IMG/VR virus record: IMGVR_UViG_3300005939_000055
Location: 1 to 23,032 of that record
From: a virus
Length of the DNA: 23,032 nt
Strand: one strand, 5' to 3'
Under the pieces are notes generated by a model, which was not told the DNA's origin, did not search any database, and saw only the letters and a program-made list of their open reading frames with translations. Positions 2,584-23,032 of this stretch are shown here, one piece after another. How positions within the stretch are numbered: the first letter of the stretch is position 1; each line of letters begins with the position of its first letter. Both the position numbers and the translations under genes were made by a program.

Positions 2584-2584
2584 T

Positions 2585-4360: not shown

Positions 4361-4368
4361 GGTATTAG

Positions 4369-5367: not shown

Positions 5368-5382
5368 CTAGGAGATTAAATT

Positions 5383-6600: not shown

Positions 6601-6612
6601 GGAGATTACAAA

Positions 6613-7231: not shown

Positions 7232-7243
7232 AGGAGTTTAAAT

Positions 7244-7723: not shown

Positions 7724-7734
7724 GGAGAACAAAT

Positions 7735-11172: not shown

Positions 11173-12845
11173 TGGCGTATTCTAATCTATTTAAAAAAAT
11201 AAATGGCAATATAACTCCTAATGATGATGCTCCTATAGATATTAGCAGTGGGTTATATGCTGACTTTACTGGACCAAAACAACAATTAGACAACAAAGAT
11301 TTTAATGTCTGGAGCATTACAGATTACACTCCAGACGGTTTTGAAGTAATGCTCATGGGTTCTGGAAGTGTTGAACGCTCAACAGACTCTCATGCAGGGA
11401 CTTATGCTTTACAACTAAATATTGAAGACGACTTTGCAGGTTCAAAAATATCACCTGTTTTATTTAATAGTGGAACTCCAGCAGTAGGAGATGAAACTTT
11501 ACAGCTTACTGTTTACGCAAAACGATTAACTGGTGTAGCGAATATTGGTGTTATTTATCAATGTGCAAATGGTGGAGACGAATATACTTATAATTTTAGT
11601 ACTACTTCTTGGGAAATATTGGGTGGTGAGCCAGGGGTAAATAATGTAGAAATACTAACAGCAACTACGTCTTACACACAGCTTACATCAACTCAAGCAA
11701 CAGTACCTAGCGGATATACAGATGGCGCAGCAGTTATATCTGGCATATCTGCAAGTGCAGGAACTTCTATCGTAATTGATGATTTGGAAATGTTAGTTGC
11801 TGGAACAGACACTGCAGTTAATGGAGATTTTGAAGCGTGGACAGCAATTAATACTCCTGACAGCTGGGATATTAGCTCACTAAAAGGAGAGAGTTACACA
11901 ATAACAGAAGAAACAATAATAATTAATTCAGGAACTTCCGCTGTTAAAATGACGGATTCTGGTGGTAATAATTCTATGCCTTATGCAGCACAAGCACATA
12001 CTGGAACTGAAAATGATGAGTTTGAATTTTCTTATTACGCTCGTGGTGCTTCTGGAAATTCAGGAACAGTAACAACTGTTGCGTTTTTACTTAACGGACC
12101 TTTAGCTTCTGCAACTAAAATGTATAACTTTGCAGATGAAGATTGGGCAGATGATTTTAGTGATTATGAGTCTTTGGCTGAAAATAATAAAAAGCAATTA
12201 GTTGTATCAACTTCTGAAACATATACACAAGATGATGGAGAGTCAACTGTTCCAGCAAGCGGTACAGCTTATCTGTATGTTTATGTTGAAACAGATGGTA
12301 TTGAGGGAGAGATAGCATATATTGATACAGCTTCGTTAGTAGCAGAGGGTTCAGGTGTTAGTGATGTTATGGCAGTTGGTGCTGACGGAGTAACGACTTT
12401 TACAGGTGTAGTGAAAGCAGCGGCAACTGATTCAGACGGTGGTCTAATAACGTATGGTCAGTTCAAAGAGGGCAGTATAACCCTACTAGATTATAATGAA
12501 TTGAATATGAAGGTAACTGGAACTGAAACACTATATGTAAATGATACAGGTAAAACAGTATTACCAATGTATATAGTTCAGGTATGTAACGATTCAGTAG
12601 ATTATACTGTTGCACCAATTTGGCAAATTGGATTTAATGATGCAGACTATAATAATTACATAAATTCTGGTTCAGTATCTTCTCCATCTTCTGAGAACAC
12701 ATTTCAAGAAGACTCTTTCTCTAATGGTTCTCCAGCTTATACTTTAGATTCTGGTGAAAACTTAAAGATAAAGATAACTACTGCTTCAACAGCAACAACT
12801 CATATAGTTACATTTTATGTTTACGGAATAATACTAGGAGATTAA
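11172..12845 (+). CDS. Adhesin-like protein with two CBM-like modules
   Basis: A 557-residue protein with no signal peptide. Two similar carbohydrate-binding-like beta-sandwich modules are visible: about 40-212 (NVWSITDYTPDGFEVM, HAGTYALQLNI, IVIDDLEMLVAG) and about 218-395 (NGDFEAWTAINTPDSWDI, SGTSAVKMTD, AYIDTASLVAEG). Both have the 'W...P..W', 'G..al.l' and 'iDd..l' landmarks of CBM4/9-type modules. The C-terminal 150 residues form another beta domain (YNELNMKVTGTETLYV, MYIVQVCNDSVDYT). It is probably a surface-binding accessory fibre of the virion, or a partner of the secreted proteins around it. Its ATG overlaps the preceding stop, so it is translationally coupled to the giant fibre-like gene. 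Confidence 0.7.
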   Translation: MAYSNLFKKINGNITPNDDAPIDISSGLYADFTGPKQQLDNKDFNVWSITDYTPDGFEVMLMGSGSVERSTDSHAGTYALQLNIEDDFAGSKISPVLFNSGTPAVGDETLQLTVYAKRLTGVANIGVIYQCANGGDEYTYNFSTTSWEILGGEPGVNNVEILTATTSYTQLTSTQATVPSGYTDGAAVISGISASAGTSIVIDDLEMLVAGTDTAVNGDFEAWTAINTPDSWDISSLKGESYTITEETIIINSGTSAVKMTDSGGNNSMPYAAQAHTGTENDEFEFSYYARGASGNSGTVTTVAFLLNGPLASATKMYNFADEDWADDFSDYESLAENNKKQLVVSTSETYTQDDGESTVPASGTAYLYVYVETDGIEGEIAYIDTASLVAEGSGVSDVMAVGADGVTTFTGVVKAAATDSDGGLITYGQFKEGSITLLDYNELNMKVTGTETLYVNDTGKTVLPMYIVQVCNDSVDYTVAPIWQIGFNDADYNNYINSGSVSSPSSENTFQEDSFSNGSPAYTLDSGENLKIKITTASTATTHIVTFYVYGIILGD

Positions 12846-12944
12846 ATGGCTTATATACCATTACAAGAAGATTTATTAGGGATGCCTACAATAGGCAGGG
12901 CAGTTAAAACAATTAAAGTTTGGTTAGAAATCCAAGAAATATAA
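12846..12944 (+). CDS. Short ORF, 32 residues
   Basis: The ATG follows the previous stop without a gap and has a good ribosome binding site (AGGAG, about 6 bases upstream, inside the preceding gene). The product MAYIPLQEDLLGMPTIG... is 32 residues with an amphipathic C-terminal helix (AVKTIKVWLEIQEI). Its first residues MAY match the start of the upstream gene and the J-like gene, which may be chance. There is no known function. The same 15-base sequence ACTAGGAGATTAAAT precedes the tail-fibre gene at about 5368-5382. It could be a real small virion protein or a leftover of a longer gene. Confidence 0.45.
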   Translation: MAYIPLQEDLLGMPTIGRAVKTIKVWLEIQEI

Positions 12945-12978
12945 GAGGCAACAATGGAAGATAGAACAAGGAGAGAAG

Positions 12979-13272
12979 ATGGCCATTGATTACACACCAA
13001 TTGTTTCAGGAGTAGGCACTTTAAGTTCAATAGGTTTCATATTCTTTTATATGAAAGCAATTAGAAAAGATACTAAAGAAGATAATTCAATTGTTTCAGG
13101 AGCTATTAAAGAAGTGGCAAAAGATTTAGCTGCTTTTAAAAACGGCCATTTCAAAGAACACATGGAAGAAGCTGAAAAACGTGGATTAGAGCAAGGTCGC
13201 AGAGAAGGTACTGAAAACTTATTAAAGACATTGCACGATAGATTAGACAAAGTTGAAGTAAATAAGGTATAA
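12979..13272 (+). CDS. Small membrane protein with coiled coil
   Basis: A 97-residue protein with one membrane helix at about 9-26 (SGVGTLSSIGFIFFYMKA) and a long charged helical tail (HFKEHMEEAEKRGLEQGRR..LLKTLHDRLDKVEVNKV) likely to form a coiled coil. The ribosome binding site is AAGGAG. This layout resembles XhlA/hemolysin-type phage membrane proteins that assist holins, although the membrane helix is N-terminal here instead of C-terminal. It lies ahead of the lysis region but is separated from it by a large gene and a terminator, so a lysis role is only possible. Confidence 0.6.
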   Translation: MAIDYTPIVSGVGTLSSIGFIFFYMKAIRKDTKEDNSIVSGAIKEVAKDLAAFKNGHFKEHMEEAEKRGLEQGRREGTENLLKTLHDRLDKVEVNKV

Positions 13273-13273
13273 T
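13243..13273 (+). promoter_or_regulatory. Possible promoter before the 778-residue protein
   Basis: A perfect TATAAT lies at 13268-13273, 30 bases before the next ATG. The best -35 candidate is TTAGAC at 13243-13248 with a long 19-base spacer, so the match is weak. It is listed because the next gene is closed by a terminator and could be its own transcription unit. Confidence 0.25.
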
Positions 13274-13302
13274 AGATAATAAATATAAACAGGAGGATTG
13301 AA

Positions 13303-15639
13303 ATGAAATTATTTAAGGGATTTAAAAAGTCAATTTTGACTTTAGGGGTGATTGCATTAGTTACCCTGACAGGCTTTTCAGCTTGGTCGTATGTCAATGC
13401 AAATCGTTTAGGAACTAACAATTGGTTTCTTGATGAAATAGGTCTTTGGTTTGGTAATTTGCCAGATGCCAAAATGTATTACAATGTTGCACAAACACCA
13501 GACACACTTACTTTAGGTGTTAGCGCACAATCCAATGCTATATTAGTAACAGAAATGGCGGATATGGGTACAGATGTTGCCCATGCAGTGCAGACAAACC
13601 CAACTCTTTTTATTCATTCGGAAGATATTACAACATCAACAGAATGGATTAGTATTACTCACGATGGCACAAATGGTGTTGTAGATGTTGGCACAGGAGT
13701 TGTTTCATTTCCAGATGGCGTTGCTTTGGGTAGTATTACAATGACTGGTGATCTTGATATGGATGGTAATTCTATTATTTTAGATGCTGGTGCCACTTCA
13801 TCAATTACAGCAGATACAGATAATCAAATTGATTTTGAAATAAATAGTGCTGATGATTTTCAGATGACAGCTAATTTATTTGCTGCACTTTCTGGCAGTG
13901 CGATGAGTTCAGCAACTTACAATACATTGTCGGCCGGTGGAACTATTACACTAGCTGGATTAGGTGGAGCCGCAAATGACGAAGATTTAGTTTTAGACTT
14001 TGAAACTGTTGCTGATGCAGTTGGTGTAAGTTCATCAACTGGTGTATTAGATATAAATTTTGGGACTATTGATATCAATCCTCAAGATATAAGTTTAACA
14101 GGTAAAATTGATGGTGGTACATTAATTGCTCCAATCGATGTTACTGCAGTTCGTGAATATGGTGTTGAATTATATTATGGTGGTAATAACTATAATGTAA
14201 CTGGCTTACGTTCCAGGGGTATTCTACAAACAACAGATACTACTGCAACAGCACAAGGTGCTGTTATTCAGGCATCAAATAGTGACGATGTTGATGTTGG
14301 TGTTTTGAATGGCGCATTAATTGAAGCCATTGGAAAATCAGATGCCAATGCTTCAACTATCACTGCGATGAGAGGTTTGTTGGTTGGTTCAGAGTGGAGC
14401 GCTTTTGATACTATAACCGATTTAAAAACATTGCATGTAAGAACACATACAAGAAATTCTGCTGCAGCAGGTTATTTTTCAAATAGCGGTTATTTAGCTT
14501 ATCTTGAAAATGAAGCAGTTGGTGGAAATGGTCAAATGTTAGATGCTGGTATCTATCTAAAAGCGACTAACGTAACTGTTCCCATGGCTTTTAATTATGG
14601 AATAGATTTTACTGGTGCAGTTGGCGAAATCAACACAGCAGAATTAAGATTGTCTAACGGTGAAACAATCGACAACGTGACAGACGGAACTATTGCAATG
14701 AATATTGCAGCTGATGGAGCAGTTGGTATAAATCTTGATTTGTATCAGCTATCAACAACACCTGCCGCTTTAGATGTATTGGGTTCAGTTACAGGTAGAG
14801 GTCAAAATGACGCTGCCGCAGATGTTGATTATGGTGTGCTTGGATTCGGGATTGTTGATCCTTCAAATGGCGCAGAAATTGGCGGTCTTGCTGTTTCATT
14901 ACAGAATGGTAGCGGAGCGCTTCCGACTAATCCACAATTTGAAATTAATGGTGGGTCAGGTTCAATAGGAGTTACAAGAGAAGCAGACGGAGCAGAAGGT
15001 GCTGCTTTAACATTTACTCAAGTTTCAGTTTCACCAGTTGCAGATGATGCGCTTGGTATGTTGAAGTTTGTCGGTTATGATGATGGTGCGAATGTTACAG
15101 AATACGCACAAATCAGAGGTGTGATCGTTGATCCAACTGATGCCGCAGAAATTGGTGGAATTGGCCTTTTTACTCAAAACGGTACAGGAACATTAGCTTT
15201 GTCCGGTGTTTTTGGACATACTGGTTCTTATGGTATTTTTCAAGCCGGTGATGGCGCTGGTTCTGGTATTTTTGCCTCAAACGGTGACTTTGATTTAATT
15301 TTAGAAACAGGTAATGCAACATCTTCAAGTCTTACTATTACAGACGGAGCAGACGGAAATATTACACTTGACGTTAATGGTGCTGGTGTTTTTACTGATG
15401 GAACATTTTCGGTTGACGATGGTGCTTTCACAGGAGTTGCTTCAATAGTTGCAACAGGTGATATTACCTCAAGTGATGCTGGCGATATAGGCTGGTCTAT
15501 TGTTGCGGCAGGTAATCAGGCTTGCAATACTACTTGCACATTCGCTTGTGTAGCTGGTCAGGATGATGATGCAGCGGGTATATTGGTAAATTGTGCCAGT
15601 GCTAATGCTGACAGATGTATTTGTGCAGGAGCTAACTAA
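13303..15639 (+). CDS. Large secreted fibre-like protein with Cys-rich end
   Basis: A 778-residue protein with an N-terminal signal or anchor (MKLFKGFKKSILTLGVIALVTLTGFSAW), an AGGAGG ribosome binding site, and a long beta-rich, Gly/Asp/Thr-rich body of the type seen in phage fibre and tail-associated proteins (for example GVIVDPTDAAEIGGIGLFTQNG). It holds an internal duplication: VDYGVLGFGIVDPSNGAEIGG and, about 110 residues later, TEYAQIRGVIVDPTDAAEIGG. The last 40 residues contain six Cys (CNTTCTFAC ... CASANADRCIC), suggesting disulfides and hence an oxidising compartment. It is followed at once by an intrinsic terminator. Function is unknown; it could be a virion fibre or a protein displayed on the infected cell. 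Confidence 0.72.
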   Translation: MKLFKGFKKSILTLGVIALVTLTGFSAWSYVNANRLGTNNWFLDEIGLWFGNLPDAKMYYNVAQTPDTLTLGVSAQSNAILVTEMADMGTDVAHAVQTNPTLFIHSEDITTSTEWISITHDGTNGVVDVGTGVVSFPDGVALGSITMTGDLDMDGNSIILDAGATSSITADTDNQIDFEINSADDFQMTANLFAALSGSAMSSATYNTLSAGGTITLAGLGGAANDEDLVLDFETVADAVGVSSSTGVLDINFGTIDINPQDISLTGKIDGGTLIAPIDVTAVREYGVELYYGGNNYNVTGLRSRGILQTTDTTATAQGAVIQASNSDDVDVGVLNGALIEAIGKSDANASTITAMRGLLVGSEWSAFDTITDLKTLHVRTHTRNSAAAGYFSNSGYLAYLENEAVGGNGQMLDAGIYLKATNVTVPMAFNYGIDFTGAVGEINTAELRLSNGETIDNVTDGTIAMNIAADGAVGINLDLYQLSTTPAALDVLGSVTGRGQNDAAADVDYGVLGFGIVDPSNGAEIGGLAVSLQNGSGALPTNPQFEINGGSGSIGVTREADGAEGAALTFTQVSVSPVADDALGMLKFVGYDDGANVTEYAQIRGVIVDPTDAAEIGGIGLFTQNGTGTLALSGVFGHTGSYGIFQAGDGAGSGIFASNGDFDLILETGNATSSSLTITDGADGNITLDVNGAGVFTDGTFSVDDGAFTGVASIVATGDITSSDAGDIGWSIVAAGNQACNTTCTFACVAGQDDDAAGILVNCASANADRCICAGAN

Positions 15640-15655
15640 TAATTAATTTAGGATA

Positions 15656-15685
15656 GGGTGCGCATTAATTTGCGTACCCTTTTTT
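15656..15685 (+). terminator. Rho-independent terminator
   Basis: A nine-base-pair stem, GGGTGCGCA at 15656-15664 and TGCGTACCC at 15671-15679, with one G-T wobble pair, a six-base TTAATT loop and a run of six T. It lies 17 bases after the stop of the 778-residue protein and only four bases before the ATG of the transglycosylase gene. It should end late structural transcripts, at least in part. Confidence 0.88.
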
Positions 15686-15689
15686 ATTT

Positions 15690-16169
15690 ATGAAATGGGA
15701 AACGTTCTATAATTTGTATAGTGAATATATCTTAAAAGCTTCTAAAGCCTATGATATAGATGAATCATTGTTAGCAGGATTGATTATGCAAGAATCTTTA
15801 GGATCTCCAACCGCCACTTCACATTGTGGGGCGTACGGGTTAACACAGATTATGCCAGCTACAGCAAAAGATAGAGGATATGATTTATCAACTCCTGAAA
15901 AGCAAATATACGCTGGTGCAGATTATCTGCATTGGATAGATAAATATTTTGCATTTGGTGATATTGAAAAAATATTAGTAGGCTATAACGCTGGCGTAGG
16001 TCGTATTAAAAATGATGCTTGGAAACAATTTAAAGAAACAGTTGATTACATACCAAGGGTTTTAAGATATGCTGATCAGTATAGAGAATATAAAAAAAAG
16101 TGTAAATCTAACGGAGGTCAAAATGGCAGAAGAAAACAAGGGTTGGAAAACAGTGACAACAGCAATTAG
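15690..16169 (+). CDS. SLT-type lytic transglycosylase (endolysin)
   Basis: A 159-residue peptidoglycan-cleaving enzyme of the soluble lytic transglycosylase fold. Landmarks: the catalytic Glu at residue 35 in LIMQESLGSP, GAYGLTQIMPATA at about 47-59 (the GLMQ-type motif), AGADYLHWIDKYF and YNAGVGRI at about 97-104. There is no signal peptide, as expected for a holin-dependent endolysin. The ATG has no visible ribosome binding site: the bases before it are the terminator's T tract, and no other start codon is open upstream because TAA at 15666 is in frame. A basic C-terminal tail overlaps the next gene by 47 bases. It could instead be a virion-associated enzyme, but the neighbours point to lysis. 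Confidence 0.88.
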   Translation: MKWETFYNLYSEYILKASKAYDIDESLLAGLIMQESLGSPTATSHCGAYGLTQIMPATAKDRGYDLSTPEKQIYAGADYLHWIDKYFAFGDIEKILVGYNAGVGRIKNDAWKQFKETVDYIPRVLRYADQYREYKKKCKSNGGQNGRRKQGLENSDNSN

Positions 16170-16332
16170 TGGTATGCTTTTGAGTTTAGGAGCTATTGCC
16201 GGTGGAGTAGCATCAGATCCAATGCAAATGCCTATGATTTGGGGTGGCGTATCTGGTTTTATTGCTGCATTAGGTTTGCTTGGTGTTGGTCATAAGCTTC
16301 AGAAATTAATTGACGCTATCAATAATAAATAA
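16123..16332 (+). CDS. Holin candidate, two membrane helices
   Basis: A 69-residue protein with a strong GGAGG ribosome binding site eight bases before the ATG, which fixes this start inside the end of the transglycosylase gene. After a short charged N-terminus there are two hydrophobic segments, about 15-31 (AISGMLLSLGAIAGGVA) and 39-57 (MIWGGVSGFIAALGLLGVG), then a polar tail ending in KLIDAINNK. Size, topology and position beside an endolysin gene fit a class II-like holin that permeabilises the inner membrane. No family-level match is claimed. Confidence 0.68.
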   Translation: MAEENKGWKTVTTAISGMLLSLGAIAGGVASDPMQMPMIWGGVSGFIAALGLLGVGHKLQKLIDAINNK

Positions 16333-16333
16333 A

Positions 16334-16540
16334 ATGTGGAAAACTATTTTAACCATATTTGTAAGTATCCTTTCGCTTGTTTTAAAACGGATGTTAAGTG
16401 GTAAGAAACGAGCGAAGTCATCTTATAGAAAGTTGAGAAATGGATATGAAGCTCGCAGGAATGCTCGCATTAATCGTGTTGCTTTGCGTAAGTCTGTGGA
16501 TAAGCTCGTGCGGAAAGAAAAGCACAACGATAAAAACTGA
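16334..16540 (+). CDS. Small membrane protein with basic tail; i-spanin candidate
   Basis: A 68-residue protein starting two bases after the holin-candidate stop, without its own clear ribosome binding site. It has an N-terminal membrane helix (about 3-19, KTILTIFVSILSLVLKR) and then a very basic region (GKKRAKSSYRKL, YEARRNARINRVALRKS). Its last 95 bases overlap the following lipoprotein gene in the +1 frame, the arrangement of lambda Rz and Rz1. However, true inner-membrane spanins have a periplasmic coiled coil and this positive tail favours a cytoplasmic location, so the spanin call is weak; a nucleic-acid- or membrane-binding peptide is an alternative. Confidence 0.45.
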   Translation: MWKTILTIFVSILSLVLKRMLSGKKRAKSSYRKLRNGYEARRNARINRVALRKSVDKLVRKEKHNDKN

Positions 16541-16694
16541 CGTACAGGCAATTCCAGAAGTGCAAGATTTGTCAGATGAAACTTTTAATAACCCGATTGA
16601 ATGTAAAATTTATTTCGAGAATTGGACATCAACCGAATATGAATTGCAAAAGTGCTATGAAAAAAGCGACAAATTATACAATGAGTGTGACTAA
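16446..16694 (+). CDS. Lipoprotein; Rz1-like o-spanin candidate
   Basis: An 82-residue protein with a lipoprotein signal: KLAGMLALIVLLCVSLWISSC, the lipobox ISSC placing the lipidated Cys at residue 22. Gly at +2 would send it to the outer membrane. The mature part is about 61 residues, acidic, with three further Cys. A second ATG at 16440 is two codons upstream; 16446 has GAG at a better distance. It overlaps the preceding basic membrane protein in another frame, follows endolysin and holin-candidate genes, and so fits the outer-membrane subunit of a two-component spanin. Unlike Rz1 it is not proline-rich. The stop overlaps the next ATG (TAATG). Confidence 0.55.
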   Translation: MKLAGMLALIVLLCVSLWISSCGKKSTTIKTDVQAIPEVQDLSDETFNNPIECKIYFENWTSTEYELQKCYEKSDKLYNECD

Positions 16695-16888
16695 TGGAAT
16701 GTTTGTTACAAAATCCGCATAATGATTTTGAACGCAAATCGAATGAATTAATAGTAATTATGATTGAAAACATTTGCGAGAATACAGAAGCGCAGATTGC
16801 ATTGATAGACTTAGTTAATCATTATAGACTTGAACTCCAAAAATCTCGAATCAGAGAGCTAGAAATCATCAAAAAACTTCAAAGTTAG
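16694..16888 (+). CDS. Unknown 64-residue helical protein
   Basis: The ATG overlaps the lipoprotein stop by one base. The product is mostly alpha-helical, ending in a likely coiled coil (LVNHYRLELQKSRIRELEIIKKLQS). There is no membrane helix or signal peptide. I do not recognise it. As the last gene before the control region, it may be a lysis-cassette accessory or unrelated. Confidence 0.5.
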   Translation: MECLLQNPHNDFERKSNELIVIMIENICENTEAQIALIDLVNHYRLELQKSRIRELEIIKKLQS

Positions 16889-17033
16889 AAACCAACAAAT
16901 AACTACCCTGACAACCGAGATTATCCTTTAAATTTGGGCCACTGTGCTATTTTAATGCCTTAGTCTATACCAAGCTATGCGTTTTATAATAATGGCTTAT
17001 ATGGCTAATTTTGGGCTAAAATAGGGATATTGA

Positions 17034-17061
17034 CCTCTCCACTTTTGCAAAACTTGAGAGG
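17034..17061. promoter_or_regulatory. 28-base palindrome, terminator or operator
   Basis: CCTCTC at 17034-17039 pairs with GAGAGG at 17056-17061 around a central TTTTGCAAAA; 12 of 14 half-site positions are complementary. A separate TGAGCTCA at 17066-17073 and seven T (17074-17080) follow. It could be a terminator for the lysis transcript, although the T tract is 12 bases from the stem, or a dimeric repressor site. Confidence 0.5.
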
Positions 17062-17118
17062 GAACTGAGCTCATTTTTTTACCACAGGTACCTACTTGAA
17101 ATCATTGATGTTTATTAA

Positions 17119-17160
17119 AATAGGAACATTTGATCTAAAAATAAATCAAATTTGCCTATT
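17119..17160. repeat. 42-base inverted repeat upstream of promoter
   Basis: AATAGGAACATTTGAT at 17119-17134 and ATCAAATTTGCCTATT at 17145-17160 are complementary at 14 of 16 positions, separated by 10 bases. It is centred about 64 bases before the -35 of the promoter at 17201. The stem is AT-rich with no T tract, so a protein-binding site is more likely than a terminator. Confidence 0.6.
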
Positions 17161-17200
17161 CACACCCCATAAATTATTTTAAAAAAGGTTGCAAAAGAGG

Positions 17201-17229
17201 TTGACAAAGTGGAAGCACTTGTATATATT
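17201..17229 (+). promoter_or_regulatory. Sigma70-type promoter, likely early
   Basis: TTGACA at 17201-17206 is a perfect -35; TATATT at 17224-17229 differs from the -10 consensus at one base; the spacer is 17 bases. Transcription would begin near 17236, about 33 bases before the first ATG with a strong ribosome binding site (17269). It is the best promoter in the window and probably drives the long right-hand gene run. Confidence 0.85.
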
Positions 17230-17268
17230 GTGATCATGACACAGACAATAAACAAAATGGAGGACAAA

Positions 17269-17463
17269 ATGAAAATCATCAAGTCAAAAAACAAGTGGAC
17301 ACAAAAAGGCAAAAACACTTTTTATCGCATATGGACTTCACCAAAAAAAGGGATTGACTCTGATGTAATTTTTAGAAAAGAAATAGACCCACTTTATTTT
17401 TGTGGGTACAGTATAACATTCGTAGACGTTGACACTTTAACCGCCAAGGAATGGCGAAACTAA
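17269..17463 (+). CDS. First early gene, unknown 64-residue protein
   Basis: Starts at an ATG preceded by GGAGG (GGAGGACAAAATG). Longer upstream reading to a GTG at 17209 is rejected because it would begin before the predicted transcription start. The product is basic at its N-terminus (MKIIKSKNKWTQKGKN), then beta-rich (TFYRIWTSP, DPLYFCGYSITFVDVDTL). It is not recognised. First position behind a strong promoter is typical of host-takeover or anti-defence proteins; that is inference only. Confidence 0.65.
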   Translation: MKIIKSKNKWTQKGKNTFYRIWTSPKKGIDSDVIFRKEIDPLYFCGYSITFVDVDTLTAKEWRN

Positions 17464-17481
17464 CTAACAAAGGGGAACAAA

Positions 17482-17838
17482 ATGAAAAAGGGAAAAAGAG
17501 CAAATCAAAAATGGGAAGTAACAAGCATTCTTTTTTTTGACTACACACACGAAAATCAAGTTGGTGAAAATGAATTTGAAACAATCGTTGAATATTCTGC
17601 AAACATTACAATCAATGACAATTTTATCTTACAAATTTCAGGAAAGAGCAATGAAGCTTTCGATCCTGAAATCCCTGAGTCTCACATGAATTTATGCAAG
17701 CTCGCAAAACAAGATTTTGCGTGTGATAATTATGATGCGAATGAAATTTGGAACTACTTACAAGACCATTGCGATTTTGAGAACAATTTTGACTTTTTAA
17801 AAGACCACTCTTTATCTGTGACTTTTGACGAATTATAA
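17482..17838 (+). CDS. Acidic early protein, unknown
   Basis: A 118-residue protein with an AAGGGG ribosome binding site. The first 15 residues are basic (KKGKRANQK); the rest is markedly acidic, with clusters such as HENQVGENEFE, DYDANEIW-like aromatic-acidic segments and DHCDFENNFDFLKDH near the end. It has beta strands at about 13-50 and helices later. Not recognised. A compact, strongly negative early protein could be a DNA mimic, but nothing in the sequence proves this. It sits between two other small early genes and shares their promoter. Confidence 0.65.
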   Translation: MKKGKRANQKWEVTSILFFDYTHENQVGENEFETIVEYSANITINDNFILQISGKSNEAFDPEIPESHMNLCKLAKQDFACDNYDANEIWNYLQDHCDFENNFDFLKDHSLSVTFDEL

Positions 17839-17862
17839 ACAATAACAAAAAAGGGGGATAAA

Positions 17863-18042
17863 ATGAACATGGCAAACGAAAGATTAGAACCGATTGATTA
17901 TTGGGGACTTACATACTGCGAATTTTGCGATAACGAAATCGAAGATGACGCTAAACTTATTGAAGAACCATTAATCAATAATCTCACACAGAAATATATC
18001 GTTTGTGATGATTGTTATAACAAGGAGTTAGCGAAAGGATAA
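17863..18042 (+). CDS. Small zinc-ribbon protein
   Basis: A 59-residue protein (MNMANERLEPIDYW...) with a strong ribosome binding site (AAGGGGGATAAAATG). It has two CxxC pairs, CEFC at 19-22 and CDDC at 48-51, separated by an acidic segment (DNEIEDDAKLIEE), which is the pattern of a treble-clef or zinc-ribbon knuckle. Such proteins in phage early regions often bind nucleic acid or protein partners. There is no recognisable family. Stop TAA is four bases before the next ATG. Confidence 0.65.
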   Translation: MNMANERLEPIDYWGLTYCEFCDNEIEDDAKLIEEPLINNLTQKYIVCDDCYNKELAKG

Positions 18043-18046
18043 TCTG

Positions 18047-18322
18047 ATGGATATATATGAAGTAAATAAACAAATATGGGTAAATAGTCCAGAAATGAGA
18101 AAATCAATAGATTATTTATTTAAAGGTGAAAAAATAGGATGGAAGTTCGGGCATTTGAAGCTACGGGCAAGAATGTGGTGGTGCAAAAAAAGAGGTCACA
18201 AATGGAGTTCAGGAAAAGTTTATAAGACTGGAGTTCCTGACATTAATGGAAGTCCCGACGCATGTAACCGATGCGGCTTGATGGTTGGTTGTGGTGGTAG
18301 AATGAGACTTTGGAATGCGTAA
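18047..18322 (+). CDS. DUF1660-like small zinc-binding protein
   Basis: A 91-residue protein. The C-terminal half has the layout of small prophage proteins of the DUF1660 type: C46-KKRGH51-KW, then C73-NRC76-GL. These four residues could hold one zinc ion. The N-terminal 40 residues are helical and unmatched (MDIYEVNKQIWVNSPEMRK). There is no strong ribosome binding site of its own; GGAG of the previous gene end (AAGGAGTTAGCGAAAGGATAATCTG) lies upstream. The function of the family is not known. Confidence 0.6.
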   Translation: MDIYEVNKQIWVNSPEMRKSIDYLFKGEKIGWKFGHLKLRARMWWCKKRGHKWSSGKVYKTGVPDINGSPDACNRCGLMVGCGGRMRLWNA

Positions 18323-18354
18323 ATTAATAAAGGATTATTATTAGGAGGAGACAA

Positions 18355-18918
18355 ATGAAAGAACGACCGATAAGAATGGACAGTAGATTTATTCCGGCGC
18401 TGCTTAATGGAACTAAGACGCAGACTCGAAGGTTGATGAATAAATGGGATTTCCTTTGCGCTTGCACAAAAAATAAAAATAAAGACACATGGACTGGAAC
18501 ATATGAAGCCGCTGGAGGTGGATTTGATTCATATGACAAAATTAAATGCCCTTATAAAATAGGCGATAGGCTTTTTGTTAAAGAATCGTTTTGGCTTGGA
18601 AAAGGTGCTTTTCATGGATTTGGTACTGAACCAAGACCATACAAATATGATAAAAAAATCAATTCATATTTTATGATGGAAGGAGATTCCCGCATCACCT
18701 TAGAAATCACAAATATTCGTGTTGAAAGGTTGTGGAATTTAACTTTTCATGATTGCCATGCAGAAGCGATGTTTGATAAACCAAAAAATAAAAAATATCC
18801 CTTTTCTGCCGTTGAATCGTTTAAATTAGTAAAAAAAGTCCTTGATTTAGAAATAGGTAATTGCGCAAAAGAAAATCCATGGGTTTGGGTGTATGAATTT
18901 AAGAGGGTAAAACCATGA
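18355..18918 (+). CDS. ASCH-domain-like phage protein
   Basis: A 187-residue protein with a strong AGGAGGAG ribosome binding site. It matches the widespread phage ASCH-like family: ERPIRMDSRFIPALLNGTKTQTRR at residues 3-26 (the GxKTxTRR hallmark), CPYKIGDRLFVKESFW in the middle, ITLEITNIRVERLWNLTFHDC, and the C-terminal NPWVWVYEFKRV. ASCH domains are a PUA-like fold thought to bind RNA or modified nucleotides; these phage members have no settled function, and some are labelled 'morphogenetic protein' without strong support. The stop overlaps the next ATG (ATGA). Confidence 0.82.
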   Translation: MKERPIRMDSRFIPALLNGTKTQTRRLMNKWDFLCACTKNKNKDTWTGTYEAAGGGFDSYDKIKCPYKIGDRLFVKESFWLGKGAFHGFGTEPRPYKYDKKINSYFMMEGDSRITLEITNIRVERLWNLTFHDCHAEAMFDKPKNKKYPFSAVESFKLVKKVLDLEIGNCAKENPWVWVYEFKRVKP

Positions 18919-19079
18919 AAACTACATTATCACCAAGCAAAATATTTCCTTATAAAACTATTATAAACGAGGACGGATCGTTTGAATTTATTTCAGAAAA
19001 AAGTGAAGAAAAAGGTTGCAATCAAGGTTGCGATAGTGTAACTATAAAAGATAGAAAGGAGGTTGAAAATGACAATTAA
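18915..19079 (+). CDS. Unknown 54-residue protein
   Basis: Starts with an ATGA overlap on the preceding stop and overlaps the following RHH gene by 11 bases, so it sits in a coupled chain. The product begins MKTTLSPSKIFPYKTIINED and has a CNQGC pair at about 35-39. The last codons contain the ribosome binding site (AAGGAGG) of the next gene. No family is recognised; it may exist partly to couple translation. Confidence 0.5.
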   Translation: MKTTLSPSKIFPYKTIINEDGSFEFISEKSEEKGCNQGCDSVTIKDRKEVENDN

Positions 19080-19230
19080 AAAAGAAAACATTCACACACG
19101 ATTACCAGCACAAGAGAAAAAGAATATCACTAAAGCCGCTAAATTAGAACAGAAGAAACGGAACGAGTATTATTCTATTAACAGGTTTATGCGTGATGCA
19201 GCAAAAGAAAAAATCAAAGGGGGAAAATAA
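19069..19230 (+). CDS. Ribbon-helix-helix (Arc/CopG-like) regulator candidate
   Basis: A 53-residue protein with AAGGAGG placed well before the ATG. The pattern IHTRLPAQEKKNITKAAKLEQKK, then YYSINRFMRDAAKEKIKGG, is that of a ribbon-helix-helix DNA-binding protein: a short strand carrying the alternating H-T-R-L residues, helix 1, a Ser/Asn-capped helix 2. These act as dimers or tetramers on palindromic operators. It may control this operon, with the inverted repeats at 17034 or 17119 as possible targets (inference). It ends with a one-base overlap on the next ATG (TAATG). Confidence 0.68.
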   Translation: MTIKKENIHTRLPAQEKKNITKAAKLEQKKRNEYYSINRFMRDAAKEKIKGGK

Positions 19231-19436
19231 TGTTAGCTTATTTAAAAACTAGAATAAATGGCGAAGTAAATGTTGATAACAAATTAAAAGAAACTAAAGA
19301 TTGGCAAGAAGCATATAATTATGATGATGTATCATATTTATTGAGCCGAGCAGTTGCAGAAGAAAAGGCTTTAGATATACGAATAGCAAGACTTAAAGGA
19401 CAAAAGGCAGATTTAAAAAACGTAATCAAACACTAA
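19230..19436 (+). CDS. Unknown 68-residue helical protein
   Basis: Coupled to the RHH gene by a TAATG overlap and preceded by GGGGG. The product has a short N-terminal segment (MLAYLKTRINGEVNV) and a long helix rich in Ala, Lys and Glu (YLLSRAVAEEKALDIRIARLKGQKADLKNVIKH) that could form a coiled coil. Not recognised. Confidence 0.55.
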   Translation: MLAYLKTRINGEVNVDNKLKETKDWQEAYNYDDVSYLLSRAVAEEKALDIRIARLKGQKADLKNVIKH

Positions 19437-19444
19437 TGACAGAA

Positions 19445-19466
19445 AGCCCCGACTGGAATCGAGGCT
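19445..19466 (+). promoter_or_regulatory. RNA hairpin before the ERF gene
   Basis: AGCC-C-CGA at 19445-19452 pairs with TCG-A-GGCT at 19459-19466 (seven pairs, one C-A mismatch, six-base loop CTGGAA). No T run follows, so it is not a typical terminator; it may be an RNA-processing, stability or translational control element in the 54-base gap before the annealing protein. Confidence 0.4.
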
Positions 19467-19490
19467 CTCTAAACAAGAAAGGGAAAACTA

Positions 19491-20198
19491 ATGATAAGCG
19501 ATAATGATATCAAAGACAGCACAAAATTACCAGAAAAAATTAATGAAATAGAAATAAAGGAAAAAAATCAATCAACGGAAATAGGAAAGCTAGTTCTAGC
19601 TTTATCTAAAGCGCAAGGTGGAATTGAAGGAGCTAAAGAAGATTCTTTAAATCCTTTCTTTAAGAAAAAATATGCAGACCTCAGTTCGGTTTGGAAAGCT
19701 TGCAGAAATCAATTATCTAAAAACGAATTAGCAGTTATTCAAACGACAGAAAGCAACAATGGCGAAATTATTGTAACAACAACACTTGCTCATTCATCAG
19801 GTCAATGGATAAGAGGACATATTGCAATTAAGCCAGACAAAAACACCGCTCAAGGATTGGGTTCTGCGTTAACTTACGGCAGACGTTATGGATTAAGTGC
19901 GATTGTTGGCATAGCTCCTGATGATGATGATGATGGTAATGAAGCGAGCGGTAAAACGTCTAAAAAAGAAACAAGTCAAAAAACAAGTGAACCTGCAAGA
20001 GTATCAAATTCCAATGTTATAACAGATCCGCAAAGAAAAAGATTGTTTGCTTTGTCTAAAGAAAGAGATGTTACAAACGGACAAATCAAAGACCATCTTG
20101 CATTGACTTATGAAATAGACTCCACAACTAAAATTCTAAAATCAGATTATGAAGATGTTTGTGATTGGGTGTTATCTCAAAACACAGAGGATAAATAA
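19491..20198 (+). CDS. erf: ERF-family single-strand annealing protein
   Basis: A 235-residue recombinase of the ERF family, which anneals complementary single strands in phage recombination and genome circularisation. Seen: LSKAQGGIEGAKEDSLNPFFKKKYADLSSVW at about 39-68 and the hallmark SALTYGRRYGLSAIVGIAPDDDDDGN at about 125-150. The rest is a Lys/Ser-rich linker and a C-terminal domain (TDPQRKRLFALSKERDVTNGQI...) like those in other ERF/RecT-type proteins. The ribosome binding site is AAAGGGAAAACTA. The stop overlaps the nuclease gene start (TAATG), fitting a two-component annealing-plus-exonuclease system. Confidence 0.92.
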   Translation: MISDNDIKDSTKLPEKINEIEIKEKNQSTEIGKLVLALSKAQGGIEGAKEDSLNPFFKKKYADLSSVWKACRNQLSKNELAVIQTTESNNGEIIVTTTLAHSSGQWIRGHIAIKPDKNTAQGLGSALTYGRRYGLSAIVGIAPDDDDDGNEASGKTSKKETSQKTSEPARVSNSNVITDPQRKRLFALSKERDVTNGQIKDHLALTYEIDSTTKILKSDYEDVCDWVLSQNTEDK

Positions 20199-20758
20199 TG
20201 GCTCTTGAATTTAACGAATCAAAACACGAATATTCAGAAGATGGAATTATTATTCCAAGCGTTACGCAGATATTAAACGAGGTTGGCATAACTGACAATC
20301 GTTGGTACGCTGATGGTTCGGCAGAACGTGGAACTCGTGTTCACAAAATAAGCCATTACCTTGACGATGGCGACTTGAATTGGAACACAGTTGATGAAGA
20401 AGCCGGACCTTATGTTAAAGCGTATGAATTATTTCTAAAAGAAGTTGCTCCGATATGGCGTTTAATTGAATACAGATTCCATAATAAAATTTATGGATAT
20501 ACTGGCACGTTAGATAGAGAAGGTTTGATATTCGGACATGACGCTATTCTTGATATTAAAACAGGTGGTATGCCGAAATGGACAGCAATCCAAACAGCAG
20601 CTTACAATGGTGGCATCAACGATAACAAACACAGAATAAGATACGGATTGCAATTAAAGAAAAATGGACTTTACAAACTACACGAATTTACTAACCCAAA
20701 CGATTTTAAAATCTTCACTTCTGCAACAGCGGTCGTGAACTACAAAAGGAGTTTATAA
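20198..20758 (+). CDS. PD-(D/E)XK nuclease, ERF partner
   Basis: A 186-residue nuclease of the RecB/Cas4-like PD-(D/E)XK fold. Motifs: GTRVHKISHYL at about 45-55 (a His-containing helix), GYTGTLDRE with D106, AILDIKTGG with D119-x-K121, and WTAIQTAAY with Q132, the order expected of the family. No iron-sulfur Cys cluster is present, so it is not a full Cas4. It probably resects DNA ends to give single strands for the ERF protein encoded next to it. Start and stop abut its neighbours (one base overlap, then directly adjacent ATG), so the three genes are translationally linked. Confidence 0.88.
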   Translation: MALEFNESKHEYSEDGIIIPSVTQILNEVGITDNRWYADGSAERGTRVHKISHYLDDGDLNWNTVDEEAGPYVKAYELFLKEVAPIWRLIEYRFHNKIYGYTGTLDREGLIFGHDAILDIKTGGMPKWTAIQTAAYNGGINDNKHRIRYGLQLKKNGLYKLHEFTNPNDFKIFTSATAVVNYKRSL

Positions 20759-21418
20759 ATGGAAAACCAAATTGAAGTAATTGAAAATAAGGCGTTAACA
20801 ATTACAGAACAAGCTGATGAAATGTCGATTATTAATGACGAAACAAATACAATAGCAGATGAATTTTTAGTGCAGATTAAAACATTAGGTAAAGCTATTA
20901 AAGAACATCATGATCCTATCGTTTCAGCGGCGCACAACGCTCATAAGGTTGCAAATGCAGCTAAAAAGAAATTCATGGAGCCGCTTGATAAAGCTGAAAA
21001 AATAATCAAACGCAAAATGGGCGTATATATATTAGAACAAGAACGGAAACAAAGAGTAGAGCAAGCAAGGCTTGAAGCGGAGGCAAAAAAACAGGCAGAG
21101 GCAGAAGCCCTTGAGCTTGCAAAACAAGCAGAAGAACTAGGGGATAATGAACGTGCAGAAGAAATAATTGAGGAAAGCATTGAAGCAAAGCCTGTTGTTG
21201 TAGCTCCACCAATACATAAAACAAAAAACTCGTCACATTCTAAAAAATGGAAATGGAGAATTAAGGATGTAAGCAAAATTAAACCATCATTTTTGATACC
21301 AAATGAAAAAGCTATCGGGGATATTGTTAGATCGATGGGGAAAAATGCTGTGAACGTAATTGGTGAAGGTGCGATTGAATGTTATCAAGAAGTAATTATG
21401 TCAACGAGGACTAGATAA
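20759..21418 (+). CDS. Coiled-coil recombination-cassette protein
   Basis: A 219-residue protein found beside ERF/RecT genes in many phages. Residues about 20-75 form helices; about 85-135 is a long Ala/Glu/Lys/Gln coiled coil (VEQARLEAEAKKQAEAEALEL); the C-terminus has the conserved block KKWKWRIKDVSKIKPSFLIPNEKAIGDIVRSMG at about 161-193. I know no proven activity; an accessory to the annealing protein or nuclease is inferred from context. It begins immediately after the nuclease stop and overlaps the next ATG by one base. Confidence 0.72.
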   Translation: MENQIEVIENKALTITEQADEMSIINDETNTIADEFLVQIKTLGKAIKEHHDPIVSAAHNAHKVANAAKKKFMEPLDKAEKIIKRKMGVYILEQERKQRVEQARLEAEAKKQAEAEALELAKQAEELGDNERAEEIIEESIEAKPVVVAPPIHKTKNSSHSKKWKWRIKDVSKIKPSFLIPNEKAIGDIVRSMGKNAVNVIGEGAIECYQEVIMSTRTR

Positions 21419-21720
21419 TGTTAACGAATTTCAAACCGAAATATTTTAAATCGGCTAAGTATAGAAAATATGTGGCTTCGTTTCCTTGTATGAGGTGTGG
21501 CAGTTTCGCATCCGTTCCTCATCACTTGCCTAGACCTGATGGGGCGAGAAGACGAAGCGGGGACGATTGGTGTGTGCCGCTATGTTATGTATGTCATATT
21601 TTACATTATCATGCGAAGCCAGTAGAAGAAAAAAAAGATTTAGCTAAAATGTATGAGAAAGCTACACAACTTTTTGAAGATTGGAATAATCAAGAAAGGG
21701 GAAAATATAATGGAACTTAA
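21418..21720 (+). CDS. HNH-like zinc nuclease (DUF968/Ref type)
   Basis: A 100-residue protein with a zinc-bound HNH-type fold: C24-MRC27-G, the HH pair at 35-36 (VPHHLPRPDG), DDWCVPLC at 49-56 and C59-H60 with further His at 63 and 65. This matches small phage recombination nucleases of the DUF968/Ref-like type. With ERF and the PD-(D/E)XK nuclease upstream it completes a recombination module, perhaps resolving branches or nicking DNA. Its start overlaps the previous stop and its end overlaps the next gene by 11 bases. Confidence 0.75.
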   Translation: MLTNFKPKYFKSAKYRKYVASFPCMRCGSFASVPHHLPRPDGARRRSGDDWCVPLCYVCHILHYHAKPVEEKKDLAKMYEKATQLFEDWNNQERGKYNGT

Positions 21721-22006
21721 TACAAATATGAGTTTTAGGTTCAATGGTTCTGATTATAATGCAAAGCTAGATAAAAAAAGACTAACTGGACAAATTTTAA
21801 GAGTTTATAATTTAATGAAAGACAATACATGGAGAACACTATCAGAAATAACTGATGCTATAGGAGATCCTCCAGCTAGTGTTTCAGCTCAATTAAGACA
21901 TTTAAGAAAAAAAAGGTTTGGCGAACATACAGTAAATAAAAACCGGAGAGGAACAAGAGAAAGTGGTTTGTTTGAATATCAACTTATAATAAATAAAGAA
22001 AATTAA
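21710..22006 (+). CDS. Winged-helix DNA-binding protein
   Basis: A 98-residue protein; the ATG at 21710 has AAGGGG upstream, so the longer reading from 21653 is rejected. Residues about 25-92 form a winged helix-turn-helix: LTGQILRVYNLMKDNTWRTLSEITDAIGDPPASVSAQLRHLRKKRFG with helix 3 at PASVSAQLRHLRKK, then a wing (HTVNKNRRGTRESGLFEYQL). Such phage proteins are common near replication and recombination genes and probably regulate transcription or assist replication. Exact role not known. Confidence 0.72.
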   Translation: MELNTNMSFRFNGSDYNAKLDKKRLTGQILRVYNLMKDNTWRTLSEITDAIGDPPASVSAQLRHLRKKRFGEHTVNKNRRGTRESGLFEYQLIINKEN

Positions 22007-22017
22007 ATAGACCACGC

Positions 22018-22047
22018 TGTTAAAGCGATTAAGGGGGACAAGTGAAA
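22018..22047 (+). repeat. 30-base direct repeat with RBS and GTG, copy 1
   Basis: Identical to 22404-22433, 386 bases downstream. It includes AAGGGGGACAA and the GTG start at 22042, so both copies drive a GTG-started gene. Confidence 0.9.
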
Positions 22048-22431
22048 GAAATCGACAAAATGACGGTTAAAGAATTTAAGGAATTACCTTCAAGACAATG
22101 GGGCGATGACATTGGTTATTTTGATTGTCTTGTTATTTTACCAACTAGAAGAAAACATGATTCAGGCTATAGATGTATGGATTTCGTTGCAGTTAAAGAA
22201 AATAAACCTATTTGCCGTTTGAGCGGATGTAGTGATGTTGTTAATTTGTGCGGTATAGGCGGAGATAACGGATTTCCGATGAAGGGAACATATCCCAAAC
22301 AAAATTGGAATATGGATTGTTTGTTTAAAAGTGGTTTGTTGCGAATTTGGTGTGGCGGTCACAAACTAGAAGCGGGCGCAGCTCTTTCTAGTTTTGAATT
22401 ATTTGTTAAAGCGATTAAGGGGGACAAGTGA
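22042..22431 (+). CDS. Unknown 129-residue protein
   Basis: Starts at GTG (22042) with a strong ribosome binding site (AAGGGGGACAAGTG); no ATG lies nearby. The product MKEIDKMTVKEFKELPSR... has a beta-rich centre (IGYFDCLVILPTR, YRCMDFVAVKENK) and Cys residues (CRLSGCSDVVNLCGIGG) and ends GALSSFELFVKAIKGDK-like. I do not recognise a proven function. Its last codons lie inside the second copy of the 30-base repeat, and its stop overlaps the next GTG start (GTGA). Confidence 0.65.
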   Translation: MKEIDKMTVKEFKELPSRQWGDDIGYFDCLVILPTRRKHDSGYRCMDFVAVKENKPICRLSGCSDVVNLCGIGGDNGFPMKGTYPKQNWNMDCLFKSGLLRIWCGGHKLEAGAALSSFELFVKAIKGDK

Positions 22432-22433
22432 AA
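22404..22433 (+). repeat. 30-base direct repeat with RBS and GTG, copy 2
   Basis: Second identical copy of 22018-22047. Here it encodes the end of the upstream protein (VKAIKGDK) and holds the ribosome binding site and GTG of the next gene. Confidence 0.9.
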
Positions 22434-22667
22434 AACACTATAACTTTAACTATCGAGCAACTTGCTGAAGAAATAAATCAAGCTCTTCACAAACAGGCGC
22501 AGGATATAGTTGAGATGATAAAAAGTAAATATAGAGAGTTTGACAATGACTTAATAGTCCAGAAATATAAAGAGGACACTTTGACAAACAAAGAATCTTT
22601 TGACTTAGGGTTTGATAAAGCATTGGAAGTGGTAGAGCAATCAATCAAAGACAAGTATCTAAACTAA
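22428..22667 (+). CDS. Unknown 79-residue acidic helical protein
   Basis: GTG start in the second repeat copy, overlapping the preceding stop by four bases. The product is largely helical (TIEQLAEEINQALHKQAQDIVEMIKSKYREF, FDLGFDKALEVVEQSIKDKYLN). No family recognised. A 13-base stretch near its end (22639-22651) recurs just inside the start of the next gene (22686-22698), so both proteins carry the tetrapeptide SIKD. Confidence 0.6.
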   Translation: MKNTITLTIEQLAEEINQALHKQAQDIVEMIKSKYREFDNDLIVQKYKEDTLTNKESFDLGFDKALEVVEQSIKDKYLN

Positions 22668-22678
22668 CGGAGGATAAG

Positions 22679-23032
22679 ATGACAGAATCAATCAAAGATA
22701 GTAGTGGCGTAAACGAGTCGGATGGCGTGAACGAGTCGTATGGCGTGAACTTGTCGGATGGCGTGAACTTGTCGGATGGCGTGAACTTGTCGGATGGCGT
22801 GAACTTGTCGGATGGCGTGAACTGGTCGCATGGCGTGAACTGGTCGGATGGCGTGAACTTGTCGGATGGCGTGCACGAGTCGTATGGCGTGAACTGGTCG
22901 CATGGCGTGAACTTGTCGGATGGCGTGAACTTGTCGGATGGCGTATGTAATTGTTTATTCATCACAAAACAGCGAGGCGTTGCGGATATGATATTTAATA
23001 AGCAAACAACACAGGAGCGAGCGGGCGAAATA
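22679..23032 (+). CDS. Hexapeptide-repeat (GVNxSx) beta-solenoid candidate, partial
   Basis: Begins at ATG 22679 with CGGAGG upstream and stays open to the window end (118 residues seen). After MTESIKDSS come 13 hexads of consensus G-V-N-[L/W/E]-S-[D/H/Y], then GVCNCLFITKQ and an unrepeated helix-like part (GVADMIFNKQTTQERAGEI). The first three positions and Ser5 are almost fixed; variation falls at positions 4 and 6. Six-residue periodicity suggests a left-handed beta helix or similar solenoid. I recall phage proteins with comparable repeats followed by an aromatic/hydrophobic cap and an 'iFnk...R' segment, of unknown function. Repeat DNA is near 56% GC, unlike its AT-rich neighbours. Confidence 0.8.
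   Translation, partial: MTESIKDSSGVNESDGVNESYGVNLSDGVNLSDGVNLSDGVNLSDGVNWSHGVNWSDGVNLSDGVHESYGVNWSHGVNLSDGVNLSDGVCNCLFITKQRGVADMIFNKQTTQERAGEI
22706..22939 (+). repeat. Tandem 18-base repeat, 13 units
   Basis: Thirteen in-frame 18-base units of type GGCGTGAACTTGTCGGAT. Differences are mostly one or two bases, in codon 4 (TTG, TGG, GAG) and in the first base of codon 6 (GAT, CAT, TAT); one unit has CAC for AAC and the first has GTA for GTG. Four units in a row (3-6) are identical, a sign of recent expansion. Confidence 0.95.

What the first reader, a model, noticed from the sequence alone, without database searches (positions are those of the whole stretch)
22679..23032. Hexapeptide-repeat gene with variation confined to two positions
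Seen: 13 tandem hexads G-V-N-x-S-x; position 4 is only L, W or E and position 6 only D, H or Y, while the frame is perfectly kept. The changed codons differ by single or double bases (GAT/CAT/TAT; TTG/TGG/GAG). The DNA is GC-richer than its surroundings. This fits a repeat solenoid that presents two variable side-chain columns on one face, able to evolve by unit gain, loss and exchange. It could be a modular binding surface (DNA mimic, receptor or inhibitor). Its place in the early/recombination region, not with tail genes, argues against a simple fibre.
Basis: partly seen in the sequence, partly recalled or inferred. Interest (0 to 1): 0.85.

Follow-up and report, generated by a model that had tools for sequence, protein, structure and literature searches.

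The report
Fast-changing phage repeat protein gene
A phage gene encodes a chain of six-residue repeats in which almost only two positions change; those positions seem to be pushed to change by selection, which suggests an evolving binding surface whose target and fold are still unknown.

Summary
Window 22706-22939 encodes 13 in-frame hexads G-V-N-x-S-x, x4 = L/W/E and x6 = D/H/Y, with one exception (N to H, unit 10). The ORF starts at 22679 behind a GGAGG and is cut by the contig end. Complete relatives have 3-24 hexads and a conserved C-terminal domain that no curated family claims; 8 of 22 scanned also carry DUF7666. In 447 hexads of 34 proteins Ser5 is kept in 445, while x4 (W/G/R/E/L/Y) and x6 (D/N/Y/K/H) vary. 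Within 26 arrays, x4+x6 gained 127 extra residues against 4 extra synonymous codons (dN/dS 5-6): diversifying selection is the likeliest reading. Unit number changes: another contig equals the whole window except for a 36-bp, two-unit insertion. Some pentapeptide cousins share DUF7666, the end of the C-terminal domain and two-column variation. AlphaFold gave no confident solenoid (repeats mostly pLDDT 28-47), so fold, 'one face' and function stay open. Best reading: a rapidly evolving binding protein from the early/recombination region, a hexad variant of known phage short-repeat proteins.

The parts
22669..22673 (+). Shine-Dalgarno-like GGAGG, 5 nt before the ATG
   Evidence: sequence
22679..23032 (+). 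repeat-protein gene, ATG start, 3' end cut by the contig end
   Evidence: 118 codons in the window
22679..22705 (+). 9-codon leader MTESIKDSS
22706..22939 (+). array of 13 hexads GVNxSx (18-bp units)
22874..22876 (+). CAC codon: the one exception (N to H) at column 3, unit 10
22940..23032 (+). first 31 codons of the C-terminal domain
   Evidence: 74% identity to L004 in the best segment, query residues 73-118; L004 continues into the full domain
19491..20198 (+). neighbour: Erf-like single-strand annealing protein
   Evidence: phrog_2324, E=1e-44
20198..20758 (+). neighbour: exonuclease
   Evidence: phrog_298, E=1.5e-12
20759..21418 (+). neighbour: protein of a PHROG annotated exonuclease
   Evidence: phrog_10477, E=2.2e-19
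21418..21720 (+). neighbour: HNH endonuclease-like protein
   Evidence: phrog_96, E=4.9e-8

Best explanation
The gene makes an intracellular phage protein with a hexad-repeat domain, probably a narrow beta-solenoid with one short strand per hexad, followed by a conserved C-terminal domain. Columns 1, 2, 3 and 5 (G, V, N, S) are mainly structural. Columns 4 and 6 point outwards and form a tunable interaction surface. Recombination between the 18-bp units changes their number and order, and point changes in x4 (mostly codon bases 1 and 2) and x6 (mostly codon base 1) are kept by diversifying selection. The protein would be made with the recombination/replication genes and bind a changing host or competitor factor. 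Shown: anatomy, conservation pattern, unit-number differences between contigs, excess of amino-acid over synonymous change, neighbourhood. Inferred: solenoid fold, exposure of x4/x6, binding, target, time of expression.
For: 447 hexads in 34 proteins, first to last unit, all in one register per protein: S5 in 445, G/A at column 1 in 443, V/I at column 2 in 420, x4/x6 variable (430 in the stricter count). 26 arrays: x4 70 extra residues vs 1 extra synonymous codon, x6 57 vs 3; columns 1, 2, 5 together 7 vs 17. dN(x4,x6)/dS(all columns) 4.9, 5.5 and 5.3, P between 4e-13 and 2e-16; against the synonymous sites of x4/x6 alone P 2e-6 to 9e-6. Another contig equals the whole window with 0 substitutions and one 36-bp insertion in the array; L042/L043 are nearly identical with 5 vs 12 units. 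C-terminal domain: 14 invariant columns in 14 sequences, 10-residue pLDDT means 67-94. ERF or RecT in 11 of 33 relatives' records; L002 neighbours are replication initiation, DNA methyltransferase and NinG/Rap. The in-register model has a 4-residue strand in each of hexads 5-9; the 50 Foldseek rows shown are by title mostly gamma-carbonic anhydrases and acyltransferases, which are left-handed beta-helices (fold recalled).
Against: Repeats mostly at pLDDT 28-47 in both models. Foldseek E 0.1-0.7 and VIA Z at most 7.0 with rmsd 7-10 lie in the range that the tool calls common. dN/dS was counted on distinct codons, ignores relatedness between arrays, and the synonymous count at x4/x6 alone is only 4. 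Column 3 also has a ratio of 1.7, so the excess is not strictly limited to two columns. Some arrays are stable: L044/L045 identical through the array; 5 of 5 further barba18A records identical to L071 in a cousin gene. No partner, expression or phenotype data.
Confidence: 0.5

Rival explanations
1. The repeats are an intrinsically disordered, low-complexity chain (G/S/N spacers, W/R/Y/D stickers) that tethers or condenses the C-terminal domain; no solenoid exists.
For: pLDDT about 30 over most of the repeats of L002; residue make-up rich in G, N, S, W, R, Y, D.
Against: In 34 of 34 proteins all units found lie in one register, and S5 is kept in 445 of 447 hexads; dN/dS at columns 1, 2, 5 is 0.20. 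A spacer-sticker chain should tolerate drift in spacing and spacers.
Confidence: 0.2
2. DNA-mimic solenoid that inhibits gyrase or another DNA-binding host enzyme, in the manner of the MfpA pentapeptide protein.
For: The window array has net charge -12 over 13 hexads; pentapeptide cousins exist; MfpA is described as binding GyrB and mimicking DNA (PMC10886550, passages seen).
Against: Array charge in the 29 arrays runs from -1.00 to +0.24 per unit, so acidity is not a family trait.
Confidence: 0.12
3. Virion fibre or collagen-like spacer.
For: Weak tail/collagen PHROG matches, a Pfam collagen match above cut-off in L016 (38.9 bits against 27.2), where many x4 are Gly, and weak tblastn matches to tail proteins.
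Against: Gly is not at every third residue in the window; the gene lies with recombination genes while tail genes are at window 458-6600; the tail PHROG matches of L002 and L003 cover the repeats, and their C-terminal domain matched no tail family.
Confidence: 0.07
4. Assembly artefact or neutral repeat expansion without selected function.
For: The array is within 150 bp of a contig end in 8 of 28 contigs, 0.34 expected; short-read assembly of repeats is error-prone (own knowledge), so some unit-number differences may be assembly effects.
Against: L044 and L045, from two records, have the same array; the pattern recurs in many contigs with different codons; excess of nonsynonymous change at two columns is not expected of neutral expansion or collapse.
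Confidence: 0.06
5. Targeted mutagenesis (diversity-generating retroelement or the like) writes x4 and x6.
For: Changes sit mostly at codon bases 1-2 (x4) and 1 (x6), with the third base a single letter in 18 (x4) and 16 (x6) of 24 arrays.
Against: RVT_1 matched 0 of 33 relatives' records, though many are fragments; all four bases occur at the changing sites; arrays are multi-copy.
Confidence: 0.02

Closest known systems
Phage DUF7666 + pentapeptide proteins (e.g. Clostridioides phage AR1086-1, L069; Rheinheimera phage Barba1A, L071)
   Same: short tandem repeats with variable columns of similar residues; C-terminal end PxFDxxxFxEITGI shared by profile comparison (97.4%, E=1.3e-11, 36 columns); DUF7666 also in 8 of 22 hexad members scanned
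   Different: period 5 (NTGxx, Pfam Pentapeptide_2) instead of 6; only the last 36 columns of the C-terminal domain align; the window gene has no DUF7666
Left-handed beta-helix hexapeptide proteins (gamma carbonic anhydrases, acyltransferases)
   Same: period of six; a low-confidence model resembles them
   Different: consensus [LIV]-[GAED]-x2-[STAV]-x (recalled) is not met; no Pfam Hexapep match
MfpA/Qnr pentapeptide solenoids
   Same: would be a regular solenoid presenting side-chain columns to a protein target
   Different: different period and sequence; no evidence for gyrase; charge not conserved
TALE repeat arrays (analogy, recalled)
   Same: modular repeats with two hypervariable residues per unit and recombination of units
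   Different: no sequence relation known to me; no evidence of nucleic-acid reading

Membership tests
Pfam DUF7666 (PF24703) | N-terminal domain match over 27 bits | tested here: not met
   Not in the window protein. Met in 8 of 22 hexad members scanned, fragments included: L015, L007, L041, L051, L062, L064, L054, L060; the others were scanned.
Pentapeptide repeats (PF00805/PF01469) | period of five residues and Pfam match | tested here: not met
   Window period is six, no match; cousins L069, L071, L082, L083 match PF01469.
Left-handed beta-helix, Hexapep | [LIV]-[GAED]-x2-[STAV]-x consensus | tested here: not met
   V2 and S5 are three apart, not four (sequence; consensus recalled); no Pfam match.
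Left-handed beta-helix, Hexapep | triangular beta-helix fold | tested here: inconclusive
   Model mean pLDDT 48; Foldseek E at best 0.1; VIA Z at most 7.0.
HTH_73 (PF24718) | Pfam match over cut-off | tested here: not met
   21.4 bits against 27, only profile end 46-70 of 71.
Collagen-like protein | Gly at every third residue | tested here: not met
   Window hexads carry L, W or E at column 4; collagen not listed for the window. L016 is over the Pfam cut-off.
Diversity-generating retroelement target | reverse transcriptase in the element | tested here: inconclusive
   0 of 33 records match RVT_1, but many are fragments.
Anti-phage defence proteins (PADLOC-DB 2.0.0) | profile match | tested here: not met
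   0 matches for 5 proteins, the window's among them.

The most novel reading that the evidence does not exclude
Phages carry a general, self-renewing recognition scaffold: short-period repeat proteins of several periods (5, 6, 9, 10 residues) that present hypervariable side-chain columns, two per unit in the hexads, pentads and decads, drawn from two small alphabets (about {W,R,G,L,E,Q,C} and {D,N,Y,H}), with units shuffled by recombination, so that each phage lineage carries its own coded binding surface against a changing host or competitor target.
Probability: 0.25. Interest if true: 0.85.

Novelty: new variant of a known kind. Interest (0 to 1): 0.6.

Why it matters
If the two-column surface is confirmed, it would be a rapidly diversifying intracellular recognition protein in phages, with a natural library of over 400 units for reading residue-to-target rules. 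It would also give a testable function to phage short-repeat proteins now called pentapeptide or hypothetical, and a simple hexad scaffold for protein design.

Tried and rejected
Curated families: for the window protein Pfam's and NCBIfam's best were below cut-off, PADLOC had none, PHROGs (no cut-off printed) at best E 0.00033, a collagen-like tail family matched by the repeats. NCBIfam 'serine-rich protein' and HxsA4 were far below cut-off. PDB by sequence: L002 best E 0.13; C-terminal profile best E 0.53; array profile 9e5c_0q at E 1.9e-11 for the whole chain but no single stretch passing, a low-complexity chain, and 7pkq_m at 0.22, both rejected. L002 model by fold: no PDB match at E<=0.001, one viral relative, A0A8S5UXY4; the C-terminal domain was not searched alone. 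The idea that L058 and L063 carry HTH_73 was my recall; Pfam did not list it for them.

Periodicity along the array: lag 3 z -1.0 (x4), -1.2 (x6), +0.8 (pair); lag 2 z 2.4, 1.7, 1.8; lag 7 z -2.2 for x4 and -2.5 for the pair; no face pattern claimed. The link of x4 with x6 inside a unit (z 7.3) is expected if units are copied whole.

Sampling: 1 of 398 genomes of the phylum of L063 matched, that one being the centre itself; 3 loci in genome contigs, scanned with one peptide pattern only, so hosts are undersampled. Viral loci: 5, 3, 16 of which 3 are unrelated GTSG proteins (L013, L022, L026), 29; many are the same contigs.

Rows dropped: one search left out L001, L012, L042, L034, L060, L007, L039 (near-duplicates or too short); L053, L056, L059 had too few or no hexads; the last unit of each array was left out. 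The 430 hexads were found by a rule that fixed small residue sets at columns 1, 2, 3 and 5 and kept one unbroken chain per protein; one search recounted every hexad between the first and last unit (447). One search left out L011, L015, L018 (no contig coordinates), L007, L056, L059, L063, L064. Pentad counts include related records (L069, L074, L076, L082).

Papers: nine searches of the held library; no listed title or abstract start named this hexad family; DUF7666 had 0 papers. Passages seen: PMC10886550, PMC9305737; PMC6715854 held none of the four terms asked. All others: search listing only.

Full report
WHAT IS THERE. The window is a 23,032-bp virus record. Its last ORF (22679-23032, ATG, GGAGG five bases upstream) holds a 9-residue leader, 13 hexads G-V-N-x-S-x at 22706-22939, and 31 residues of a further domain before the contig ends. 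The repeats have no indel. Columns 1, 2 and 5 never vary, column 3 once, columns 4 and 6 often. The array is richer in G+C (0.573 against 0.360).

THE FAMILY. Searches with the window protein, the C-terminal domain of a relative, a DNA pattern for the repeats and a C-terminal profile found relatives in viral contigs and in three bacterial assemblies: Lachnospiraceae MD329, a Tenericutes MAG and a Bacteroidetes MAG (the last holds only a C-terminal piece). Complete members have a repeat domain followed by a C-terminal domain with 14 invariant columns among 14 sequences and an end like LPEFDAxxFxxITGI. 8 of 22 hexad members scanned match DUF7666 at the N-terminus. L056 and L059 have Gly/Cys-rich triads instead of hexads before the same kind of C-terminal domain. 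Pfam, NCBIfam and PADLOC have no model that claims the window protein, and PHROGs only weak matches.

COLUMN STATISTICS. Every hexad between the first and last unit of 34 proteins, near-duplicates included: 447 hexads, and in 34 of 34 proteins all units found lie in one register. Column 1 G407 A36 S4; column 2 V395 I25 N24 T2 A1; column 3 N318 S44 A31 and others; column 4 W97 G85 R84 E42 L31 Y28 and others; column 5 S445 T1 G1; column 6 D139 N122 Y89 K22 H21 and others.

SELECTION. Codons were compared inside each array, so that codon preferences of different phages do not matter. In 26 arrays column 4 had 70 extra residues and 1 extra synonymous codon, column 6 57 and 3, column 3 20 and 2, columns 1, 2 and 5 together 7 and 17. 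Normalised by sites, dN at x4+x6 over dS at all six columns is 4.9, and 6.1 over dS at x4+x6 alone; the pooled ratio is 5.5 in 24 arrays and 5.3 in a stricter 20. Column 3 gives 1.7, columns 1, 2 and 5 give 0.20. On the sites of x4/x6 alone the excess is also significant (P 2e-6 to 9e-6). Among one-base codon pairs at x6, 57 of 70 differ at codon base 1; at x4, 49 of 74 at base 1 and 22 at base 2. The third base is a single letter in 18 (x4) and 16 (x6) of 24 arrays. Relaxed constraint would give a ratio near 1, so I read this as diversifying selection. The counts treat each distinct residue as one event and ignore relatedness; a codon model would be better.

UNIT GAIN AND LOSS. The contig behind L001 matches window 1-16776 without a difference and 16679-23032 with no substitution and one 36-bp insertion, two units, at the start of the array. 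L042 and L043 are 99.8-99.98% identical around arrays of 5 and 12 units; L047 and L048 (the same contigs as L020 and L012) are 99.9% identical over 6.5 kb with at least 19 and 11 units. Against this, L044 and L045 are identical through the array. Arrays lie within 150 bp of a contig end in 8 of 28 contigs against 0.34 expected, as expected for repeats that break assemblies; some differences may therefore be assembly effects.

COUSINS. Other DUF7666 proteins carry other short repeats: NTGxx pentapeptides in the cultivated phages of L069 and L071, a GASSNTGxx decapeptide in Blautia phage Montmirail (L072), and NASSGxxSx in L018, a metagenomic phage that also carries a hexad gene. Their variable columns use similar residues. 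Pentads show the same bias: columns 4 and 5 have 66 extra residues and 8 extra synonymous codons in 9 arrays, column 2 19 and 5, columns 1 and 3 none and 13 (some arrays are related). The end of the C-terminal domain is homologous between hexad and pentad groups (hhalign 97.4%, E=1.3e-11, 36 columns). In records related to L069, arrays of 15, 20, 26 and 31 pentads follow closely similar DUF7666 domains; in Rheinheimera phages the array was identical in 5 of 5 further barba18A records and one unit longer in the one record of another species. So lability is common but not universal.

STRUCTURE. AlphaFold with 21 aligned sequences, some truncated (first: L002), gave a C-terminal domain at 10-residue means of 67-94 and most of the repeats at 28-47. 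With 19 sequences in register (first: the window array) it gave a strand of four residues (V-N-x-S) in each of hexads 5-9, at pLDDT 40-47. Of the 50 Foldseek rows shown for that model most are, by title, gamma-carbonic anhydrases or acyltransferases, left-handed beta-helices as I recall, at E 0.1-0.7; the second look gave Z up to 7.0 with rmsd above 7 A, ice-binding proteins and YadA heads among the rows. This hints at a beta-solenoid but proves nothing. If the strand is V-N-x-S, x4 shares its side with V2. No positive lag-3 pattern was found.

PLACE AND FUNCTION. In the window the gene follows Erf, exonuclease and HNH genes; tail genes lie at 458-6600 and an endolysin/transglycosylase-like gene at 15690-16169. 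Of 33 relatives' records 8 hold ERF and 3 others RecT, two of these three being the near-identical L042 and L043. In L002 the neighbours are replication initiation, DNA methyltransferase and NinG/Rap. I infer early or middle expression; I found no expression data, and a transcriptome paper on a Rheinheimera phage has no 'pentapeptide' in its text. The window array is strongly acidic (-12), but the family ranges to slightly basic, so a DNA mimic is not a family trait. The best-supported mechanism is a rapidly evolving interaction surface on a repeat scaffold, next to a conserved C-terminal domain, against a variable host or competitor factor. The target is unknown.

VERDICT. A real, conserved gene family with a plausible ribosome-binding site in the window; a hexad variant of known phage short-repeat/DUF7666 proteins; the strong and interesting result is the codon-level diversification of two columns together with unit turnover. 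Fold and function remain open.

Noticed in passing
window 22020-22047 and 22406-22433: Exact 28-bp direct repeat (30 bp in the match) covering the ribosome-binding site and GTG start of two consecutive small genes (22042-22431 and 22428-22667); 0 expected by chance.
   Followed up: partly
L057:2954-3589: Same phage record as a GVS hexad gene carries a G-[ND]-A-x-V-x repeat protein (phrog_5070, unknown function; Pfam YdcK beta-solenoid repeat, 87.1 bits), also with two variable columns by eye.
   Followed up: partly
L002:1134-1706: Seven-residue repeat protein (LRAEGDKLWAEGSK...) in a phage that also has the hexad gene; coiled-coil-like Pfam matches.
   Followed up: no
L018:1399-2319: DUF7666 protein (Pfam E=1.1e-33) with nonapeptide repeats NASSGxxSx in the same phage as a hexad gene; phrog_4433, unknown function.
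   Followed up: partly
L059:5767-6327 and L056:5857-6357: Relatives in which the hexads are replaced by Gly-Cys-x triads (x mostly Tyr, Asp or Cys in L059) before a related C-terminal domain.
   Followed up: no
window 7735-11172, 11172-12845, 13303-15639: Three large ORFs between tail and lysis genes without a PHROG match at E<=0.001.
   Followed up: no
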